Source of the DNA: Candidatus Poseidoniales archaeon
GTDB taxonomy: Archaea > Thermoplasmatota > Poseidoniia > Poseidoniales > Poseidoniaceae
Length of the DNA stretch: 36,656 nt
Reading direction: 5' to 3'
Assembly (NCBI GenBank): GCA_003602605.1
Contig: QQRW01000010.1
Location: 1 to 36,656, forward strand
In this document: positions 433 through 34,834 of the stretch, piece after piece
How the letters are laid out: each line of letters opens with the position of its first letter
Position numbering within the stretch: position 1 is the first letter of the stretch
Notes under the pieces: model-generated
The model's database searches: none
The model's input: the letters and a program-made list of their open reading frames with translations, nothing else
Told to the model about the DNA's origin: nothing
Translations under genes and position numbers: made by a program

Positions 433-1617
433 ATGTCATGGTCAACAATTCTTGAAAGGCAGGCCTTGTGGCATACGGATTCAGCCTCTCAGTATCGATT
501 GAGCCCTGAGGATGCCGTCGAATTGTACCAAAATGCACCCCTCCATCAACTCATGAGTGCCGCACTCTTACGACGGAATGCGATGCACGGCGATAGTAAA
601 GTTACTTATCTCATCGACCGAAACATCAACTACACAAATATCTGTACAATTAACTGCCAATTTTGTTCTTTTTATCGCCCACCGGGCCATGATGAAACAT
701 ACACTCAATCCGTTGATGAGATTTCTGCACGTATTCAAGAACTCGAAAATATCGAAGGTGTTCGAATTCTTATGCAGGGGGGGGTAAACCCCGATCTTTC
801 ATTTGAATGGTATGAAAACCTCTTGCGGGAGCTTTGTACACGTCACCCAACGATTGCAATTGATTGCTTCAGCCCCATTGAGATTGAAGGAATTGCGGAG
901 GTTAGCGAACTTTCAACACTCGAAGTTTTGACTCGTCTCAAGGCTGCAGGCATGCACGGCCTCCCCGGAGGTGGAGCAGAAATGCTGGTCGATGATGTTC
1001 GCAAGGATGTTTCTCCGAAAAAGGGGCTTCCTGCTAACTGGCTCAGAGTCATGGAAGAAGCTCAATCGTTAGGATTGACGACCAGTGCAACGAATGTCAT
1101 TGGATTTGGGGAGACACTTGAACAGCGCGTCGAACACATGAACCGTCTACGGCAGTTGCAAGACCGTTCTCTTGAACAGTATGGGATTGGTTTCACGTCC
1201 TTCATTGCATGGCCGGTTCAACTTGAGGTCAACAGTTTCGGTCGAAGGAACAGGGGTCAAAACAAAATTCAACTTGGCGCAGGCTCAACAGAATACCTTC
1301 GTCATGTGGCAGTTTCCCGACTCTTCCTCGACTCGATCCCGAATATCCAATCTTCATGGCCTACAATGGGCATTAAAACCGCCCAAATGGCTCTCTTCGG
1401 TGGCGCTAACGATGTCGGCTCAACTATGATGGAAGAAAATGTAGTATCTGCATCAGGTACCACGAAATTCAATGCTTCTGAAATTGAATTACAAAACGTC
1501 ATTCTGCGTGCAGGATTTTCACCTCAGCGTCGTGACAGTGATTATGTGTTCTTGGAAACACCTGTGTGTGGGACGCATCTCAGTGAACTGCATTCCCCGC
1601 CGCCTTCTCAGTTTTGA
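433..1617 (+). CDS. mqnC: Radical SAM cyclic dehypoxanthinyl futalosine synthase-like (MqnC)
   Basis: CTINCQFCSF is a CxxxCxxC radical SAM motif. MQGGVNPDL, GLPGGGAE and IQSSWPTMGIKTAQMALFGGANDVGSTMMEENVVSASG resemble MqnC more than CofG/CofH. Confidence 0.85.
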   Translation: MSWSTILERQALWHTDSASQYRLSPEDAVELYQNAPLHQLMSAALLRRNAMHGDSKVTYLIDRNINYTNICTINCQFCSFYRPPGHDETYTQSVDEISARIQELENIEGVRILMQGGVNPDLSFEWYENLLRELCTRHPTIAIDCFSPIEIEGIAEVSELSTLEVLTRLKAAGMHGLPGGGAEMLVDDVRKDVSPKKGLPANWLRVMEEAQSLGLTTSATNVIGFGETLEQRVEHMNRLRQLQDRSLEQYGIGFTSFIAWPVQLEVNSFGRRNRGQNKIQLGAGSTEYLRHVAVSRLFLDSIPNIQSSWPTMGIKTAQMALFGGANDVGSTMMEENVVSASGTTKFNASEIELQNVILRAGFSPQRRDSDYVFLETPVCGTHLSELHSPPPSQF

Positions 1618-1621
1618 ACCA

Positions 1622-4600
1622 CTATGAAGTTGTAGAATCGTAGTATACGACCCATATTTCGGCATGGATGTTACGCTCTCCGTTTCCTACACCGTCGGAT
1701 GGAACATACTCTTGACCATTGAATAATCCTCGATAAGTGAGATGGTTCACTCCGCCGTTCATATCACTCCAACCGGTGATGTCATACGTCCACTGTTTTA
1801 CATCTTGACCGGCACACCAACCCGCTCGGCCAAAGGGCCATGAACCAAATTGATTGGCCACGACACCGTTCTGAACTTCATTTTCGCAACCCTCATTCGA
1901 ATAGACAATTGGATGCCATTCGTATGTACTGAATCCATTCATCGAATAGTGGTGTTCATGGTCACAGAACTCAGCACAATTTGCATTATCCTTTCCGAAC
2001 CCATGGCCAGTTATTGTGGCCACGATTTGGACTTTTTCTGCCCATGAAGGTACAGTGAAATTGAGGTCACGCGTGTATTTTGATACATCATTATATGTTC
2101 CGTCGAATTGTCCGCCAGTAAATGCAAAATCAGCCGCAGTGCTGCGTAAACCGCTTCCCCAATTACTCAGCAATACAGTTATTGTGAGGTCGCCTTTGTT
2201 CGCTCCCCGATATTTGAATGTCCGATTATCATCGTTTTCCAACATGAAAAGGTATGGGGAGATATCTGTGAGCCATTTTCCTTCGCGGCCGTATGTGGTA
2301 ATCCACCTCATGAACTCCGTGCCGCATGCAGAGGTATTGTTGCGTTCACAAATTCGAAGGTTTGCTTCATAATCCCACTCATGACAACCTGCGTATGTTC
2401 CATCGCTTGTTTGATACCGATTCATCCGGTCAACGCATGCATGCTCATGATAGACTTCCATTGTGTCGTAGTCTGTGATGTTGCTAGGGAACTCAGCGCT
2501 CATTGATGAGGTGAAGCCACCCCCCCAGCCGCCCGTGTGACGGTCAAAATCCATTATCGTCACTTCTTGCACGCTAGGGTCAGACCTCCGTATCTCAACT
2601 GGGAATTCGGCATTCCATTGTGCAGGCTCATGAACCAAATGCATAGGATCATTGGTGGATGATGTCCAAGCATACAAACTCCCTGTTTCTCTCGCAAGTT
2701 GGAAACGGTCTATCCCCATGTACAACGGGGAGTTGAAATTAGAAATCATTTGCCCTAATCCTCCAGAAATGCTGTTTGCTCTTTGGTCGATGAAATGTAT
2801 TCGGCCATCCCATTCCTGCTCCTCATTTGGGTTAAGTGCATTTTCCACCGCCGTTTTACGACTCACGATATCGGTGTGATACGATGAATCAAAGGAGCCA
2901 TAGAACACATGAACATTATCTGGCATTGCTCGAAGAAACTGACCAGGGCTTTGGCCCCAAGTCGCAGAATTAGAGTTCCCACCAGAATCAGTATACTTGA
3001 ACAAGAAAAAATAAATCTCGTAACCCGTCCATTCCTGTTGGAAGTAAAATGTACCATCAAGCGTGGGTATTGAAAAATCAGGAACGGATTGCATAGGGCC
3101 GTCAAGAGCAGATGAACTCGTCCATGGAACCGCAGATTGAATGACGGCGCATCCATCAGCATCTATAGTCCATCGTTCCGGTGAGTTTGGGCAGAGGTCA
3201 ACGTTAGCGAACACACCATCAGCATCAATATCCGCACATCCTACAGCATTGACTGGTAATTGTGCGGGGGTTCCCGGGCACTGGTCGTCGAAGTCGTTAA
3301 CACCATCCACATCAGTATCACGTTGAACGGCAGCGCATCCATTTTCATCTACTTGGGTTGAATTGAGCGGAGTTTCAGGACATAAGTCGAGGGGGCTGCC
3401 TGTGCTGTTGACATCTTCAACAGAATCATTGTCGTCGTCAAGGTCTTCCGTTGAATCTGAGCAGCCATCGCCATCAAAATCAGTTGACGAACTACGAATC
3501 CAATCGGTTAATCCCTTCGGACATGAATCCATTTCATCTTCACGACCATCGTTGTCATCGTCCATGTCCTCATCAAGATCAGAACAACCATCGCTGTCCC
3601 AATCACTGAATGTGCTTGAACTCCAACCGATGAATCCCCGAGGGCATGAATCATCAGCATCGAGTATTCCATCGTTATCATCGTCATTATCTTCATCGGC
3701 GTCATGGCAGCCATCCGAATCATAATCGGCATTTGGGAAACTCACCCAACCAAATGAAGTTGGACAAAGATCATAGTCGTCGCCGACACCATCGTTGTCG
3801 TCATCTGTATCTTCTTGTAAGTCATGACAACCGTCTTGGTCTTGGTCACTCGCAAGCGATGAAGTCCATCCATCTGCAACACCATAACCATCCGGACAAC
3901 GATCATTTTCATCCGTGATTCCATCGCCATCGGTATCTTCGCCTTCATTCACAATGATAATTTGGGTCACAACTGTGTCATTTTTTTGAGCATGAGAGCC
4001 ACATTCAACATCGGTTTGGATGTCAAAAGACGATACTGATTCTGAGAGGTCGAGTAAGAGCTTCCAAGATCCATCATCCTTGACTACAGGTGATTTGATT
4101 GTACCCTCTTCGAGCACTATCTGAAGCGTGCATGTGGGAATATTGGCATGAATCACTGTCCCCTCATACCAAATGAGTCGTTGTTCATCAATTTCAATAA
4201 ATACCGGGGCTGTAAGAATTGGAGCATCTTCATCGACGGGCAGTACCGTAATCACGTGGGTAAGTCGCACAGGTTGCGGATCAATGAATTGAGCATTGTT
4301 CGTAGTGAAAAATTCGATTTGAATGGAATAATCTCCTTCCATCTCGGGAACAAAAGTAAGAAGGTATCCTTGCTGATTTTTCTCCCATTCATACAACAAA
4401 AGTGACGTGAATTGAGGCGTAAGAATTGTCGGCTCAACTCCCCATTCATCACCTTGGTTTGTTATCACTACCTGAAGGGCGACTGGAGTCCCATCCATTG
4501 GAACAGACTGGATTATTGCATCCCATGAAGCATTGACTGAAACCATACCAGTGTTTTCATTCCCTACATCAGTATTTTCAGATTCGATATCGGCATTTCC

Positions 4601-4663
4601 AAGGCAGCCTGAAGTAACTAGCAAACCGACAAGCAGAATGGCATAGAGTGTGCGCCTTTCCAT
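1622..4663 (-). CDS. Secreted lipoprotein with Ig-like N-terminus, thrombospondin type 3 (TSP3) repeats, redoxin-like segment and PNGase F-like C-terminal region
   Basis: The internal ATG at 4663 gives MERRTLYAILLVGLLVTSGCLG, a lipobox; the track ORF extends to 4732. DxDxDGxxDxxD/CP repeats follow, then CHEWDYEANLRICE...CGTEFMRWITTYGREGKWLTDISPYL and GHGFGKDNANCAEFCDHEHHYSMNG...FGSWPFGRAGWCAGQ, which resemble the N- and C-domains of peptide-N-glycosidase F. Confidence 0.8.
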   Translation of the reverse strand: MERRTLYAILLVGLLVTSGCLGNADIESENTDVGNENTGMVSVNASWDAIIQSVPMDGTPVALQVVITNQGDEWGVEPTILTPQFTSLLLYEWEKNQQGYLLTFVPEMEGDYSIQIEFFTTNNAQFIDPQPVRLTHVITVLPVDEDAPILTAPVFIEIDEQRLIWYEGTVIHANIPTCTLQIVLEEGTIKSPVVKDDGSWKLLLDLSESVSSFDIQTDVECGSHAQKNDTVVTQIIIVNEGEDTDGDGITDENDRCPDGYGVADGWTSSLASDQDQDGCHDLQEDTDDDNDGVGDDYDLCPTSFGWVSFPNADYDSDGCHDADEDNDDDNDGILDADDSCPRGFIGWSSSTFSDWDSDGCSDLDEDMDDDNDGREDEMDSCPKGLTDWIRSSSTDFDGDGCSDSTEDLDDDNDSVEDVNSTGSPLDLCPETPLNSTQVDENGCAAVQRDTDVDGVNDFDDQCPGTPAQLPVNAVGCADIDADGVFANVDLCPNSPERWTIDADGCAVIQSAVPWTSSSALDGPMQSVPDFSIPTLDGTFYFQQEWTGYEIYFFLFKYTDSGGNSNSATWGQSPGQFLRAMPDNVHVFYGSFDSSYHTDIVSRKTAVENALNPNEEQEWDGRIHFIDQRANSISGGLGQMISNFNSPLYMGIDRFQLARETGSLYAWTSSTNDPMHLVHEPAQWNAEFPVEIRRSDPSVQEVTIMDFDRHTGGWGGGFTSSMSAEFPSNITDYDTMEVYHEHACVDRMNRYQTSDGTYAGCHEWDYEANLRICERNNTSACGTEFMRWITTYGREGKWLTDISPYLFMLENDDNRTFKYRGANKGDLTITVLLSNWGSGLRSTAADFAFTGGQFDGTYNDVSKYTRDLNFTVPSWAEKVQIVATITGHGFGKDNANCAEFCDHEHHYSMNGFSTYEWHPIVYSNEGCENEVQNGVVANQFGSWPFGRAGWCAGQDVKQWTYDITGWSDMNGGVNHLTYRGLFNGQEYVPSDGVGNGERNIHAEIWVVYYDSTTS
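3130..3960 (-). repeat. TSP3 calcium-binding repeat block, degenerate units of about 40 aa
   Basis: Repeating protein pattern (D.DSDGC.D.DED.DDDNDG..D..DSCP.G...W.SS) within the 1622..4663 CDS, followed by shorter DxDxDG units. Confidence 0.85.
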
Positions 4664-4703: not shown

Positions 4704-5849
4704 TCATATTGGGACTGATTCAGCACGGCCATCGTTTGTTGGTAGTGCTGAAATTTGGGAGCATGATTTCGGATGCATAACTGGAAGCGGCAACACCCAC
4801 AAGAGAGGCCCGCCTTTGGAACGTTTAATCCGGATGATGAGTTCCCAGTGAATTCGAATCAATTTGCTTGAAACTGTACCTGGCCATTCCATGGCGGGTG
4901 GGTCAAGGGTCATGACTTGCTCACTGAGTAAACATCGTCCACCGGTTTCCATACTACGCATTGGTCGTAGGAAAAGTCCACCTTTTACTTCTCGAGCTTC
5001 CATTGGGGCTTCTTCCCCACCTCCCGTACCGTCATCCAGACCGATTTGCCAGTGATGCGGCAATTCAGTCGTCAAACCTGCTGGAGGCTGCTTCGATTGC
5101 GCTACTCCGAGGGAACGAAAGATTTCTTCTCGAGCGGGAGGGAGTGCACCTACCCTCCATAGGACATCGATTTCTTTCCAGTCTTCACGAGTTTCGTCAA
5201 TAGATACTTTCAGCTTGAGCGGTTGACCAGCAATTGGTTGTTCAACCAGAGTTATTGATGGGTCGATTGGTTCTGATTTCAAGAAGTTTTGCTGTTGAAC
5301 CAAATCTGCCAAATTTGCACCAACTCTCAACGCAAGAGGGCCCAACAGAAGCGGCAATAATATTATTGCCAGCAGTGGATAATCCAGTAATCCAATACGA
5401 ACAGTACCTGTGCCAATTCCTTGTATGCCCAATGAATTGAGGAGTGGCTCAATGAACAGATACCCAAGTGCAATGAGAAGTACGACTACAGTTTTTGAGA
5501 TGAAATTTCGTATTGCTGCATGGATCGGGTTTGGAGTTAGATACCAGCCCTGTCTTTGTTCATTGACGATCAACGGTTTTTTGTTGTTTTCTAATATGTG
5601 TTCACTTCGTTCGTTCTCTTCGTCTGCGCACGGCTCCCCATCAATCAAATATCGCTGTTCTATGATCCATGAATCGTCGCTTCCAAGTTTGAAACTCGGC
5701 GCTAGATTTTCGACCGTGTTCATGAGATCACTACGTGTTCCAGTTTCGACAATCCTTGTTGAGGTTGCAATAGGCAGTTTTTCCGGAATAAACCGGTGTG
5801 GTTCAAATGGCGGGTACCGAATACGTTGTTCTACTTGTAATTCGGGCAT
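4704..5849 (-). CDS. Uncharacterised membrane protein with central hydrophobic helices
   Basis: 381-aa ORF with two hydrophobic stretches (TVVVLLIALGYLFI; LLAIILLPLLLGPLAL), colinear with flanking minus-strand genes. Confidence 0.7.
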   Translation of the reverse strand: MPELQVEQRIRYPPFEPHRFIPEKLPIATSTRIVETGTRSDLMNTVENLAPSFKLGSDDSWIIEQRYLIDGEPCADEENERSEHILENNKKPLIVNEQRQGWYLTPNPIHAAIRNFISKTVVVLLIALGYLFIEPLLNSLGIQGIGTGTVRIGLLDYPLLAIILLPLLLGPLALRVGANLADLVQQQNFLKSEPIDPSITLVEQPIAGQPLKLKVSIDETREDWKEIDVLWRVGALPPAREEIFRSLGVAQSKQPPAGLTTELPHHWQIGLDDGTGGGEEAPMEAREVKGGLFLRPMRSMETGGRCLLSEQVMTLDPPAMEWPGTVSSKLIRIHWELIIRIKRSKGGPLLWVLPLPVMHPKSCSQISALPTNDGRAESVPI

Positions 5850-16377: not shown

Positions 16378-18513
16378 TCACAAATCAATTTCCCGTCCCC
16401 ACGCGTCAGTTTCGTTTGGTTCAATTTGTGCCTCTAGTGATACAGTCTCGGCGTTCGATTGAGACTGTTCCGGCTTGATTTTTGGACGCTTTTCCAACAT
16501 AGCAAACAGTACCCATACTGCGCTGATGAGACCTGCGCATCCTAGTACTCGTCCGGGCGTTCTCCATTCGTCGAATGTACTGCGCTCTCCATCGAGGGCA
16601 GAATACTCAAGCTGTATACTCCACCTGTGTCCACTCTGTGAAATGAGAACGAGTTCACCATCTACTGACATTCGGTCTTGCAAAAGGCCGTTTGGTTCTA
16701 TTCGGATCTCAATCGAATCGTTTCCTGACAGGGTGACTCTGCTATCGATGTCGCCAATGCGTGACATAGGGCCGTCGAGTTCGGCGGTGAAAGTTTGCTC
16801 AGTATTTCCGAGTGATTTGATTGGAATGACAAGTGTCGATGGACTAAACGCCTGCATAATCCCAGTTTCGATGGATTCAAGGGGTATTCTTCCGAGTGTC
16901 AAAGTTTTAGTTTTGATGAACATTTTATCATCACCACAACTCATTTCGCCCTCAATCACAGCCTCAGCATTTGCAGTACCTGTTGATGAAAATTGCAGTT
17001 GTACCTCAGTTGTTCCCTGGGCCAATTGAGTTTCCTGATCGACAAATGTTCGACCATCGGAAACCGTCAGGTTGTGAGTGAACGTACAAGGTTGTTCAAC
17101 ACTCACTGATAGCGGGAAACTTTCACCGGGTAAGAGGACTCCTCCAAAATCGGGTGCATCAATGGCAAGTTCAGAACTGCAATTAGGTGCAGTGAAGTGA
17201 ATGTCTACGGTTATGTTGATCTCAACCGATGCTATCCAAGGAACCAAAAAACCATCATGATCGTAGATGAGGACACCTTCAGCACCAAAGGAACTTCCAT
17301 TTTGAAACACGTCGGATGCTTCACCAGAATTCACACCGTTGCGCAAATCTGTGCGACCATCTGCCTCAATGACCGTTAGCCACGGTTGATCGGGGTCTCG
17401 GTTCAGTTCATTTTGCTCTTCGTCTCCAACACTGCGGTCTTGGTACGTTACCAAAATGCCATATCCGGGGAGATGCTGGTCAAAGCCGGAATTTGATCTA
17501 TATTCAATCCACACATACTCATCTTCAGAGAGAGGGATTTTGAGGGATGTTCCGTTTTCGCTCATACCGTTCATACGTATGGTTGGTCCAATGCAAGGCA
17601 TTTGGGCACTTGCTGGCCATGTCAGGTCCATTGTTTGCGTTCGGTTTGCACCAAGCAGTTCGAGACTCGCCGACGTTGGGAGTGCGGGCCATACACCGCC
17701 ACCGTTCCAATTTCCACTTGCCATTATATCCCAGTCACCGATGCCTTTCCAATCGTTCAAGTGTCCAGCCTCGTGTACAGGATAGAGATCCATCGCACCC
17801 ATCTGGTGCATCATTTCATGCAAGATCGTTCCCATTCCACTGGAGCCGGTTCGAATACTCGCCATTGTGTAGTGTTCGACTTCTATACCGTTCTCAACCT
17901 CGATTGATGTGTCAAATCGAGTAAAGTGGCTCCAGATATTACTCGTTTGTCCAGGGCTTTCCTCTTGACCTTTGGACGTATGGAGTATGAGTAAACGGTC
18001 TACGATACCATCATCGTTGAGATCATATTCGTCCCAATCAGCATAACTCATTTGGTCGATTACGGCTTCTTCTGCTAATTTCATAGGTAGGAAATCACCG
18101 TTTGAATCCATATCTCTGTTACCATTTGTATCGCTGCCATAGTCAGGCAAAGAACCAGATGCTCGCGTAACTCGAGAGCTTACATCAATGTGGACCTGCG
18201 TGTTTGAACCGGACAACTGAGATAAATAGTCACGAGCGATATCATTGAGCAGGATTTCTGCTTGAGTAGGTCCAGAAGATTCTGAGGCGGGATGACTCTC
18301 GAAATCGATGACGAGGACGAGCCAGCGTTCTTTTTCTTGCAGTTGTAAGAGTGGAACTTCCTCCTCCTGGACAACAATCGTGTTTTCATTCACCCATTGT
18401 TCGAGGGTATCGTTGTTTGTGAAAGCCCACGAACTTGCGAGAAGTAAAGCAACGAGGATTGGCACACCAAACCTCGGACTCATGCTATGATGGAGAACAG
18501 TGAAGTGTTTCAA
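16378..18513 (-). CDS. Secreted M6-family metalloprotease with C-terminal membrane anchor
   Basis: HEMMHQMGAMDLYPVHEAG...GIGDWDIMASGNWNGGG is the M6 HExxHxxGxxD signature. Signal peptide PILVALLLASSWA and C-terminal TM CAGLISAVWVLFAM. Confidence 0.88.
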   Translation of the reverse strand: MKHFTVLHHSMSPRFGVPILVALLLASSWAFTNNDTLEQWVNENTIVVQEEEVPLLQLQEKERWLVLVIDFESHPASESSGPTQAEILLNDIARDYLSQLSGSNTQVHIDVSSRVTRASGSLPDYGSDTNGNRDMDSNGDFLPMKLAEEAVIDQMSYADWDEYDLNDDGIVDRLLILHTSKGQEESPGQTSNIWSHFTRFDTSIEVENGIEVEHYTMASIRTGSSGMGTILHEMMHQMGAMDLYPVHEAGHLNDWKGIGDWDIMASGNWNGGGVWPALPTSASLELLGANRTQTMDLTWPASAQMPCIGPTIRMNGMSENGTSLKIPLSEDEYVWIEYRSNSGFDQHLPGYGILVTYQDRSVGDEEQNELNRDPDQPWLTVIEADGRTDLRNGVNSGEASDVFQNGSSFGAEGVLIYDHDGFLVPWIASVEINITVDIHFTAPNCSSELAIDAPDFGGVLLPGESFPLSVSVEQPCTFTHNLTVSDGRTFVDQETQLAQGTTEVQLQFSSTGTANAEAVIEGEMSCGDDKMFIKTKTLTLGRIPLESIETGIMQAFSPSTLVIPIKSLGNTEQTFTAELDGPMSRIGDIDSRVTLSGNDSIEIRIEPNGLLQDRMSVDGELVLISQSGHRWSIQLEYSALDGERSTFDEWRTPGRVLGCAGLISAVWVLFAMLEKRPKIKPEQSQSNAETVSLEAQIEPNETDAWGREIDL

Positions 18514-31244: not shown

Positions 31245-34200
31245 TTACTTTTTCGCATCGAGGTACTGCTGCCCATAATACTGCCACTGCTCCATAGTCC
31301 AGTTAGGCGGTAGGCCTTCGGGCGGTAATTCAGGGCCAACATTTGTCCCTAAAGTCGGCATTGTCACTTGAGTTGCTGTTGAAATCGGTGGGCCTCGAGA
31401 TACCTCTTCGCTGAACATTTCCGGTATGTCCTTGGAAATGTTTTCATCTTCTGGAGATTCATCGAAGCCTTGGCGCTTTCGCAATAGGAGCGTCAATAGT
31501 ATAGCTGCAAACAGGAATCCAGCAATTGCAGTAGCCAAAACTTCAGCATCCATCCCCAACTCGTCTGCTTGCACATTTTGGAATCCGAATGTCTGTTCTC
31601 CGTTCCAAAATAGTGCTCCATCTTCGGATTCCACAGCGATTACTATTGTTCCATCAGTTGGACCGTCCAATCGATGGAGTTCACAACGAACATCCGTTGT
31701 TTGCAAGGTCATGTGACCCGGCTCAAACTCAAAAGTGCGCCCTGTTTCGTTCACTAAAATTCCGAGGCACACAATTTGCCATCCATCAGGCTTGGTAATA
31801 CCGAGGTGGAACGATTCGGTTTGGCTCGAGGCAGAGGAAAGGTTTACCCAGAAAGGAACTGGAATGCCAGACATTTTTGTCTCGTTTGATTTCTGGCTCA
31901 ACTCCACGTCAAGGACTCGTTGTGAATCGACGAGGATTAACACATCATGGATCAATTCAAAGGGAGTTTTATCACCAGTATCACCGGCAATAACTTCGAA
32001 ACTTACCACGATTCTGCTGTTGAGTGTCATGGTGTCCGGAATTAGTAAATCGACAGTAATTTTCATTTCTTGCCCAGGCGACATGGTGAATGTGCTCAAT
32101 TCATTGAGCGGTCTCGAAGCTCCAGACTCGCCTATGCTCAAGAAACTCATCAGTCCTTCATTTGGCGGAGATGATGATACACTTGCTTTAATTTTGAAGG
32201 AATCGTCAACAGCATTACCGAGATTCACTACTGTAATGTTTACAGATGCAGCCCCTCCCACTGCCGCAGTTGTTTCTGTGAGATTAGACACAATTGCTGG
32301 GATTCTAACTGATGCAGTGATTGCATCAAACTCGATTGAATTATCTTCATCCATTGACTCGATCAACCCATCACTGCTATCTACGCGGAATGAGAGCGTA
32401 TGTATCTCTCCGGCGCGTTCTTCACTCGGCAAAAGAATCATAATTTGTACATTGCGAATGTCTTCATTATCATACGGTGCAGACAATTGTATTGGTCCGG
32501 TATGGTTCATCCCTCCAATTCGTATCCACCATGTCCAAGAGTTTGGAAGTGAATTTGTTGAGATGATAGCATTAACTGGCCCATTGCCATTATTCTCAAC
32601 ATCGAGGTTCACTTTCACTGGAACGCCAGGCATTAGCTTCATCGGTGCCTCGTTGAGGGATAATCGCAAATCACTAACGGTTCGAACTTTAATTCCACTG
32701 AAGGCTAAGCCCTCGAAGTTCATTCCACTGCGATGTGATGTGATTGTAGGAGTAATCGTTGGTGCGCTGTCGCCTGCCTGTGCCGTAATTGGCGAAGTAA
32801 TATCAATTCGAAATGTAGTCGTAGACTCACTGTTCACTACCGCCGCCTGGGTAGGAGGCGATTCAATTACCCAGTTTCCTTGGTTTAGATATGAAAGGTC
32901 GATGGCAAATATGTCTTGTCGACTTGCATTGTTCCATATTGTGTATTCAACAGTGATGGTTCCGCCGGCATCGACTTCCCACTCACGGTTGAATTGTTCA
33001 TAGGTCATCCCTACTTCCGCATCACTTACCATCGATGCTGAGACATCAATATCCTGGGCATGTGTGCGCATCGTAATGTTCTGTGATTTTGCTAACAAGG
33101 TGAATTCAAACATCGAATCTGGAATGGCATTCTGTGGGACTGTAAGTAGGAACTCTACGTGGACAGGCGTGTCTGGCCTGACAAGCACATCCTCGCTTTG
33201 CGTCCATCCAAAATTAACACTCCAGCCAGCCCCTAAGTTTGAATCCTCAATACTTAATTCGAAAACATCTGTTGCTTCACCCTTGTTTTGTATTTCCACA
33301 GAAAACGGACACGAACTCCCAGGCGCGCATGAAGGTGGAAATTCTGGCTGAACAATATACGGTTCACGATCCGGCATCACTTGAAATTGCAGCGGCAAAG
33401 TCGTGTTTACTGCGGAATATTGGCTCGATACTCCACGGAATGTCATTTGAGAAAAACCGGATGTAGCATTCTCATCCGGCCTAATTTTAATGTCAATCAG
33501 TTTTGATTGCCCCGGTGAGAGCAATACACCTGATTGTTCATTGATTGATACGCCATTTGGGTTTGCATAATACACCTCCCAATTCACTGGTAAACCGAGT
33601 ATTTCGGGCAGAACAGAATCTGAAATGTTACCGGCATTTGTCACTTCAACGCGTACAGTACCCCATTGCCCGGGAGTAGAACCTATTGTTGAAACACCGT
33701 TTGATGCGAGTGAATATTCCTCTGGTCGTACTTTTTGGTCGTATACAAATACCAATTCATCCAAATAGTATCCGATATCTGTGGTCGTGGCGTCTGATTC
33801 AAACAAAAACCGGAACTGTGTTTGAGAGTGGTAGTGCTCCTGTGGGACTGGAATCAATGGCGATACAATACCCCTGTCGTTGACTGTAAAGGTTCTATAA
33901 TCTTGACCGTCATCGAAGTTTTGGTCAACCGTTCCTTGAACAGTCGTAAGGTCAAACCATCCACCCATGGCAGTTTTTACCTGCACCTTGAGGCGATCAT
34001 TAGTTGCTGCACTTCCCGTGTAAAAGAAACTTAGACCGTTGGTTCGTGTCGGACTGGAAACAGCATCTGACATATCGATTACGGGAGTTGTAAGAGATGT
34101 TGCTAAATTGTTCGAATACGATGATAATTCACCGTTACCTACATGGCAACTGCTGCCCAAAGAGAGACCAGTATCTGAGCTAATTCCCCATTCCGCACCA

Positions 34201-34781
34201 GCAGTCCAACCGGATAATGAGTCGCAGTTGAAGTAAGAGCGAGCAACAGTAAACGTCGATGTGTATTCATCATTCATTGGCTCGTCGTCGACAACCGTTG
34301 ATGTTGTCCGGACGAGGAGCGTATGATTACCCGAATAAGTGGGCGTGAATGTTTTCGAAACTGTATTCGAATTGCCCCCGGTTAAGGAAGACAACTGGAG
34401 TGTGTAATTAACGGTTTCAAACAGCGCATACTCGTTATGCAGGACCTTAATGTTCACATCAATCGTTCCTGAACTTGATGTACCTTTATTCTCAACGAGA
34501 ACTTCAAGTTGAATTGGTACATCAACGACTGCGTCGACCACATACAGTTCTTGAGGACGGTTAAATCCGATTACAGGGTAGTTCGATGAGAACATTCGAT
34601 ACTTTTCCTCGTCACCAGAGGTGGTATACGAAAAGGAAACTTCAGTCACGGTTACGTCGACGCCTGTCGCTTTTGCTGATGACTCAAACTGTGATGAGTG
34701 ATTAAACTCGATTACGCTCTCTGATGGAATATTTCCACCAGCAAAAAGTAACAAAATCAAACACGCTAGTATTCTCTTCAT
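31245..34781 (-). CDS. Giant secreted membrane-anchored surface protein with CARDB/Ig-like repeats
   Basis: Signal peptide MKRILACLILLLFAGGNIPS (ATG 34781), repeated 'ENNGNGPVNAIIS'/'NLGNAVDDSF'/'NKGTSSSGTIDV' CARDB-type motifs, C-terminal TM ATAIAGFLFAAILLTLLL and a cytosolic tail. Confidence 0.82.
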   Translation of the reverse strand: MKRILACLILLLFAGGNIPSESVIEFNHSSQFESSAKATGVDVTVTEVSFSYTTSGDEEKYRMFSSNYPVIGFNRPQELYVVDAVVDVPIQLEVLVENKGTSSSGTIDVNIKVLHNEYALFETVNYTLQLSSLTGGNSNTVSKTFTPTYSGNHTLLVRTTSTVVDDEPMNDEYTSTFTVARSYFNCDSLSGWTAGAEWGISSDTGLSLGSSCHVGNGELSSYSNNLATSLTTPVIDMSDAVSSPTRTNGLSFFYTGSAATNDRLKVQVKTAMGGWFDLTTVQGTVDQNFDDGQDYRTFTVNDRGIVSPLIPVPQEHYHSQTQFRFLFESDATTTDIGYYLDELVFVYDQKVRPEEYSLASNGVSTIGSTPGQWGTVRVEVTNAGNISDSVLPEILGLPVNWEVYYANPNGVSINEQSGVLLSPGQSKLIDIKIRPDENATSGFSQMTFRGVSSQYSAVNTTLPLQFQVMPDREPYIVQPEFPPSCAPGSSCPFSVEIQNKGEATDVFELSIEDSNLGAGWSVNFGWTQSEDVLVRPDTPVHVEFLLTVPQNAIPDSMFEFTLLAKSQNITMRTHAQDIDVSASMVSDAEVGMTYEQFNREWEVDAGGTITVEYTIWNNASRQDIFAIDLSYLNQGNWVIESPPTQAAVVNSESTTTFRIDITSPITAQAGDSAPTITPTITSHRSGMNFEGLAFSGIKVRTVSDLRLSLNEAPMKLMPGVPVKVNLDVENNGNGPVNAIISTNSLPNSWTWWIRIGGMNHTGPIQLSAPYDNEDIRNVQIMILLPSEERAGEIHTLSFRVDSSDGLIESMDEDNSIEFDAITASVRIPAIVSNLTETTAAVGGAASVNITVVNLGNAVDDSFKIKASVSSSPPNEGLMSFLSIGESGASRPLNELSTFTMSPGQEMKITVDLLIPDTMTLNSRIVVSFEVIAGDTGDKTPFELIHDVLILVDSQRVLDVELSQKSNETKMSGIPVPFWVNLSSASSQTESFHLGITKPDGWQIVCLGILVNETGRTFEFEPGHMTLQTTDVRCELHRLDGPTDGTIVIAVESEDGALFWNGEQTFGFQNVQADELGMDAEVLATAIAGFLFAAILLTLLLRKRQGFDESPEDENISKDIPEMFSEEVSRGPPISTATQVTMPTLGTNVGPELPPEGLPPNWTMEQWQYYGQQYLDAKK

Positions 34782-34834
34782 CGGGCCCAATCTCAAATAT
34801 TCCTTCAATATATATGAGGGAATTGGGTGATGAA

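What the first reader, a model, noticed from the sequence alone, without database searches (positions are those of the whole stretch)
1622..4663. Archaeal lipoprotein joining TSP3 repeats to a PNGase F-like (peptide-N-glycosidase) region
The C-terminal ~300 residues carry paired PNGase F-like hallmarks: EWD...E..RWITTYGREGKW..DISPYLFML for the N-domain and GHGFGKDNANCAEFC...QFGSWPFGRAGWCAGQ for the C-domain. They sit on a lipobox-anchored, Ca2+-binding TSP3 stalk. A surface deglycosylase would fit an organism feeding on marine glycoproteins, and PNGase F is best known from bacteria. Motifs are seen directly; enzymatic function is inferred.
Basis: partly seen in the sequence, partly recalled or inferred. 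Interest (0 to 1): 0.72.

Follow-up and report, generated by a model that had tools for sequence, protein, structure and literature searches.

The report
Archaeal surface N-glycan-stripping enzyme, animal-like
Abundant ocean archaea carry a cell-surface protein whose working end is almost certainly an enzyme that cuts sugar chains off proteins, and its nearest studied relative is the fish enzyme Ngly2 rather than the familiar bacterial PNGase F.

Summary
PF09113 scores 3.7e-20. PF09112 alone is not significant, but both halves align to solved PNGases. The closest is zebrafish Ngly2 (acid PNGase, PDB 9lwg; profile E=1.4e-62, Foldseek 2.3e-28); PNGase F is far weaker (E about 1e-10). The residues proven essential in Ngly2 are present (D764, E898), and W763, H887 and R946 are also kept; all are invariant across the aligned archaeal, bacterial and fish sequences. 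PNGase F's E118 is absent, as in active Ngly2, so its loss does not refute activity. The gene lies at one chromosomal site across both Poseidoniales families (146 of 293 genomes; clean empty site in five of six sampled lacking genomes), under strong purifying selection. Best reading: an active, surface-tethered, Ngly2-like PNGase that strips N-glycans from environmental glycoproteins or glycopeptides before proteolysis. Substrate, pH optimum and role are inferred. It is neither classical PNGase F (no E118) nor a full Ngly2 (no PA domain). I found no report of this family in archaea in the held papers.

The parts
1622..4663 (-). whole gene: 1013-aa lipoprotein, TSP3 stalk + thioredoxin-like + PNGase
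4604..4663 (-). signal peptide and lipobox (residues 1-20, ...LLVTSGC)
   Evidence: sequence; same in relatives
3944..4603 (-). poorly conserved N-terminal region (residues 21-240), weak Ig/filamin-like match (E=0.09)
3149..3937 (-). TSP3-type Ca-binding repeat stalk (residues 243-505)
   Evidence: PF02412; ten DxDxDG motifs
2594..3091 (-). thioredoxin/redoxin-like domain without cysteines (residues 525-690)
2114..2575 (-). PNGase N-terminal half (residues 697-850)
   Evidence: alignment to Ngly2 and PNGase F
1733..2095 (-). PNGase C-terminal half (PF09113, residues 857-977; homology runs to about 1010)
2372..2374 (-). D764 = PNGase F D60 = Ngly2 D421 (catalytic)
   Evidence: mutant data PMC12753239
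2003..2005 (-). H887 = Ngly2 H546 (PNGase F W191 position)
   Evidence: PMC12753239
1970..1972 (-). E898 = PNGase F E206 = Ngly2 E555 (catalytic)
1826..1828 (-). R946 of the RAGWC motif, invariant
4704..5849 (-). upstream neighbour of unknown family; left border of the conserved site
433..1617 (+). CofH/MqnC-type radical SAM gene, convergent neighbour; right border of the conserved site

Best explanation
The gene encodes an active, cell-surface-tethered peptide:N-glycanase of the Ngly2-like branch of the PNGase F superfamily. A lipobox anchors it outside the membrane, a calcium-stiffened TSP3 stalk holds it away from the cell, and a redox-dead thioredoxin-like domain (a dimerisation/scaffold module in Ngly2) precedes the two jelly rolls of the PNGase. 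D764 and E898 hydrolyse the GlcNAc-Asn amide, releasing the N-glycan and turning Asn to Asp. The likely role is to strip N-glycans from environmental glycoproteins or glycopeptides so that secreted peptidases can digest them. Shown: domains, fold similarity, conserved catalytic residues, fixed site, purifying selection. Inferred: anchoring, activity, substrate, pH, role.
For: PF09113 E=3.7e-20. Profile vs PDB: Ngly2 1.4e-62 over both PNGase halves plus the Tx-like domain, PNGase F about 3e-10. Foldseek of the model: Ngly2 2.3e-28, PNGase F 1.4e-12, then other PNGases. D421/E555 of Ngly2, whose Ala mutants are dead (PMC12753239), are D764/E898 here and identical in every aligned sequence, as are W763 and R946; H887 is identical in all but PNGase F itself. 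146 of 293 order genomes carry it, at one syntenic site in 20 sampled loci as far as each reaches. dN 0.12-0.28 with saturated dS. Poseidoniales are described as proteolytic (PMC6461757), and a secreted-type M6 peptidase lies in the window. No GH20, GH38 or GH92 was found in this 86%-complete genome, so use of the peptide fits better than use of the glycan.
Against: No biochemical test. E118 of PNGase F, where E118Q leaves 0.1% activity (PMC9102325), is absent; Ngly2 lacks it too but is active. Ngly2 H422 is Tyr here, and the PA domain said to shape the substrate cleft is missing. The gene is not in a glycan or protease operon; its neighbours are housekeeping genes. The mean pLDDT of the model is 76.6, with poor loops at about residues 888-898 and 920-953, which include active-site segments.
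Confidence: 0.78

Rival explanations
1. An active PNGase whose substrates are the archaeon's own N-glycoproteins (surface-layer or envelope remodelling and turnover) rather than food.
For: The genome encodes an STT3-type oligosaccharyltransferase, so it probably N-glycosylates its own proteins; the enzyme is tethered to its own surface.
Against: STT3 and PNGase are not coupled: 7 of 8 PNGase-lacking genomes keep STT3 and one PNGase-bearing genome (G030) shows none. The gene is cleanly absent from many genomes, mostly genera with smaller genomes.
Confidence: 0.15
2. A catalytically dead PNGase fold kept as a glycan-binding adhesin on a thrombospondin-type stalk, used for particle attachment.
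For: TSP3 stalks are common in this genome, and thrombospondin genes in Poseidoniales have been linked to adhesion (PMC6461757). E118 is missing.
Against: Both proven catalytic acids and the conserved active-site Trp and Arg are invariant in archaea, bacteria and fish; a lectin would not need D764 and E898 together.
Confidence: 0.07

Closest known systems
Zebrafish Ngly2, acid PNGase (PDB 9lwg; PMC12753239)
   Same: Tx-like domain without CXXC followed by a two-domain PNGase; catalytic Asp and Glu; His at the H546 position; no E118 equivalent; 34-36% identity in the PNGase part
   Different: Ngly2 has a PA domain inserted in the Tx-like domain, H422 (Tyr here), is lysosomal, and has no lipobox or TSP3 stalk
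PNGase F of Elizabethkingia meningoseptica (PDB 1pgs/1pnf/3pms)
   Same: two jelly rolls; W59, D60, E206, the RAGWC Arg and several Cys kept
   Different: no Tx-like domain; has E118, W120 and W191, here Tyr, Gly and His in the HMMER register; E about 1e-10 only
Deinococcus radiodurans 'peptide-N-glycosidase F-related protein' WP_010889584.1
   Same: lipoprotein-type start, PF09113 2.9e-35, 35% identity
   Different: carries a PA domain; archaeal Tx-like profile does not match it; no TSP3
Uncharacterised Myxococcota-type Tx+PNGase proteins (L057-L069 and others)
   Same: Tx-like domain without PA, then PNGase; same catalytic residues; nearest prokaryotic kin
   Different: about 500-600 aa, short linker where the archaea have a TSP3 stalk

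Membership tests
PNGase F superfamily (PF09112 + PF09113) | C-terminal jelly roll, PF09113 above cut-off | tested here: met
   72.6 bits vs cut-off 25
PNGase F superfamily (PF09112 + PF09113) | N-terminal jelly roll, PF09112 above cut-off | tested here: inconclusive
   No PF09112 hit, but phmmer/hmmsearch alignments to PNGase F and Ngly2 span it and bacterial relatives reach 1e-5 to 1e-3
PNGase F superfamily (PF09112 + PF09113) | catalytic D60 and E206 | tested here: met
   D764, E898, invariant in all rows
Classical PNGase F (type I) | E118 at the active site | tested here: not met
   Non-acidic residue (Tyr818 by the HMMER register); the same strand in Ngly2 is also non-acidic
Ngly2 (fish acid PNGase) | Tx-like domain lacking CXXC before the PNGase | tested here: met
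   Profile match to 9lwg residues 82-202 (i-E 0.0015); no Cys in 184 aa; Foldseek thioredoxin hits
Ngly2 (fish acid PNGase) | PA domain inserted in the Tx-like domain | tested here: not met
   No PF02225 and no room: Tx-like domain is contiguous
Ngly2 (fish acid PNGase) | H546 and H422 near the active site | tested here: inconclusive
   H546 kept as H887 in all archaea; H422 is Tyr/Phe in archaea
Ngly2 (fish acid PNGase) | PNGase activity only at acid pH; homodimer | not testable with these tools
   needs purified protein
TSP3 (PF02412) repeat proteins | tandem acidic calcium-binding repeats | tested here: met
   25.0 bits at cut-off 25, six stretches; ten DxDxDG

The most novel reading that the evidence does not exclude
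Marine Poseidoniia strip N-glycans from algal or animal glycoproteins at their surface with an animal-type PNGase gained long ago from bacteria. This would be the first archaeal member of the PNGase F superfamily, and a PA-less natural variant that keeps H546 but not H422, which would show directly what sets acid versus neutral activity and access to folded substrates.
Probability: 0.5. Interest if true: 0.62.

Novelty: new variant of a known kind. Interest (0 to 1): 0.52.

Why it matters
Poseidoniales are the most abundant planktonic archaea in ocean surface waters (PMC6461757) and feed on protein; how they handle glycosylated marine protein is not known to me. A surface PNGase gives a concrete, testable step. 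It also extends the newly named Ngly2 group, described in animals and a few bacteria with no mention of archaea, to archaea and to a wide set of Myxococcota-type bacteria. That supplies natural variants (with and without PA, with and without H422) to test the proposed cause of the acid optimum, and possible new deglycosylation reagents.

Tried and rejected
Chance motif match: rejected by the E-values. Contaminant bacterial contig: rejected, because the gene is in conserved synteny with archaeal housekeeping genes across two families. Phage-borne or mobile gene: two scans of IMG/VR gave no relative and PLSDB gave only one Deinococcus replicon. Redox function of the Tx-like domain: rejected, no cysteines. 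A glycan-utilisation locus: no glycosidase next to it, and no GH20, GH38 or GH92 in the genome. Pfam PF09112 as a stand-alone test was uninformative. The tree could not fix the exact bacterial sister of the archaeal clade: one-clade support was 91/84 in one run and 65/92 in another, with long branches for Ngly2 and PNGase F. Literature searches on PNGase in archaea or Marine Group II gave nothing relevant.

Full report
Observation. The ORF at 4663..1622 (-) is intact and encodes 1013 residues. Its upstream in-frame ATG (4732) falls within the preceding gene, which ends at 4704; the start at 4663 gives a lipobox signal peptide, as in relatives. Pfam finds N-glycanase_C (PF09113, 3.7e-20, residues 857-977) and TSP_3 repeats (25.0 bits); PF09112 is not hit. 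All 20 relatives scanned hit PF09113, one hits PF09112 weakly (0.095). The quoted motifs lie at 760-797 and 885-952.

Domain layout. Residues about 525-690 form a thioredoxin/redoxin-like domain: AlphaFold2 gives most of it high confidence, Foldseek hits thioredoxin-family proteins, and it has no cysteine in the window protein and none or at most two, not conserved, in relatives. The whole is: lipobox, variable N-terminal region, TSP3 stalk (243-505, ten DxDxDG motifs), Tx-like domain, PNGase N and C halves (697-1010).

What it is. The best solved match is 9lwg, zebrafish Si:dkey-256h2.1 (phmmer 5.3e-41; profile 1.4e-62; Foldseek 2.3e-28). That protein is Ngly2, the acid PNGase characterised in 2025 (PMC12753239): Tx-like domain without CXXC, a PA domain inserted in it, then a PNGase domain; D421A and E555A are inactive. 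The 9lwg chain numbering is offset by 25 from the paper's, so D421 and E555 fall on CAHWD and CGEFC. Here they are D764 and E898. W763 and R946 are also invariant in every aligned sequence, and H887 (= H546) in every one except PNGase F itself, which has Trp. PNGase F matches far more weakly (about 3e-10) but over both halves.

The E118 test. D60 and E206 are kept. E118 is replaced by a non-acidic residue, Tyr818 in the HMMER register; MAFFT places it differently but also at a non-acidic residue. In PNGase F, E118Q leaves 0.1% activity, against less than 0.01% for E206Q and none for the aspartate mutant (PMC9102325). But active Ngly2 also lacks an acid there, and in type II PNGases the position is glycine, with another glutamate taking over and room made for core alpha1,3-fucose (PMC9522356). 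So E118 loss argues against 'type I PNGase F', not against activity.

Distribution and history. PF09113 is present in 146 of 293 genomes of the order, in both families, mostly in frames of about 1000 aa, and in four sampled genomes of a third family of the class, again with a lipobox and TSP3 repeats where read; none of the other Thermoplasmatota listed with a match lay outside this class. Twenty sampled loci share the order topoisomerase, FAD oxidoreductase, 381-aa protein, PNGase, CofH, M24 peptidase, as far as the loci reach; L045, L049 and L051 lack a detectable copy of one or more flanking genes. In five of six lacking genomes examined, the 381-aa gene and CofH are direct neighbours, a clean empty site; in the sixth a different 305-aa ORF sits there. 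In the second family, absence is concentrated in genera with smaller genomes. This points to an old gene at a fixed place, with losses. dN of 0.12-0.28 against saturated dS shows strong purifying selection.

A scan of GTDB contigs with an Ngly2-led profile found 254 relatives. The best 80 are Poseidoniales plus mostly Myxococcota-type bacteria, with one Anaerolineae, one Sumerlaeota and one Oligoflexia. Nearly all the bacterial ones examined match the archaeal Tx-like profile as one contiguous stretch, that is without a PA insertion; Anaerolineae L056 and Deinococcus WP_010889584.1 carry PA, and in the second tree they group loosely with Ngly2. The archaeal sequences form one group (91/84; 65/92 in a second run) beside these bacteria, so ancient transfer from bacteria is likely, but the donor is not resolved.

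Mechanism and role. The chemistry follows from Ngly2 and PNGase F: amidase cleavage of GlcNAc-Asn. Anchoring and stalk imply action outside the cell. TSP3-like stalks are common in this genome. The order is described as proteolytic and dependent on external amino acids (PMC6461757). GH20, GH38 and GH92 were not found in this 86%-complete genome, so the gain is more likely access to the polypeptide than sugar. Own glycoproteins are a live rival, because the genome has STT3, but STT3 and PNGase are not coupled across genomes.

pH prediction. The authors of the Ngly2 paper suggest H422 and H546 explain the acid optimum. The archaeal and nearly all bacterial proteins keep the second but have Tyr, Phe or Arg at the first. 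Seawater is near pH 8, so a neutral-active enzyme would point to H422 (or the PA domain) as the acid determinant. This is inference.

Novelty. It belongs to the PNGase F superfamily by fold and catalytic residues, but is neither classical PNGase F (no E118) nor a full Ngly2 (no PA, no H422). The Ngly2 paper does not mention archaea, and searches of the held papers found no PNGase of this family in archaea. The library is incomplete, so that is not proof of first report.

Noticed in passing
own genome G000:C21:146307-147122 (L136) and relatives: The STT3 oligosaccharyltransferase match of Poseidoniia lies in very long open frames (mostly 2100-3277 aa; 3225 in this genome), suggesting a giant AglB-like protein.
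   Followed up: partly
L138:6866-7783: In genome G027 a different 305-aa ORF occupies the PNGase site between the 381-aa gene and CofH.
   Followed up: no
L084: Contig labelled 'uncultured Rhodobiaceae bacterium' carries a Poseidoniales copy nearly identical to archaeal ones; probably a misbinned contig.
   Followed up: partly
4704-5849 (-): A 381-aa protein with no Pfam family that is the usual upstream neighbour of the PNGase gene, and is kept in genomes that lack the PNGase.
   Followed up: partly
16378-18513 (-): 711-aa M6-type (immune inhibitor A-like) peptidase next to a TatC gene; fits a protein-degrading lifestyle.
   Followed up: no
31245-34808 (-): 1187-aa surface-type protein with CARDB/NEW3 Ig-like domains.
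   Followed up: no
L057-L130 (bacterial loci): A broad family of Myxococcota-type Tx+PNGase proteins, many with lipoprotein-like starts, apparently uncharacterised.
   Followed up: partly
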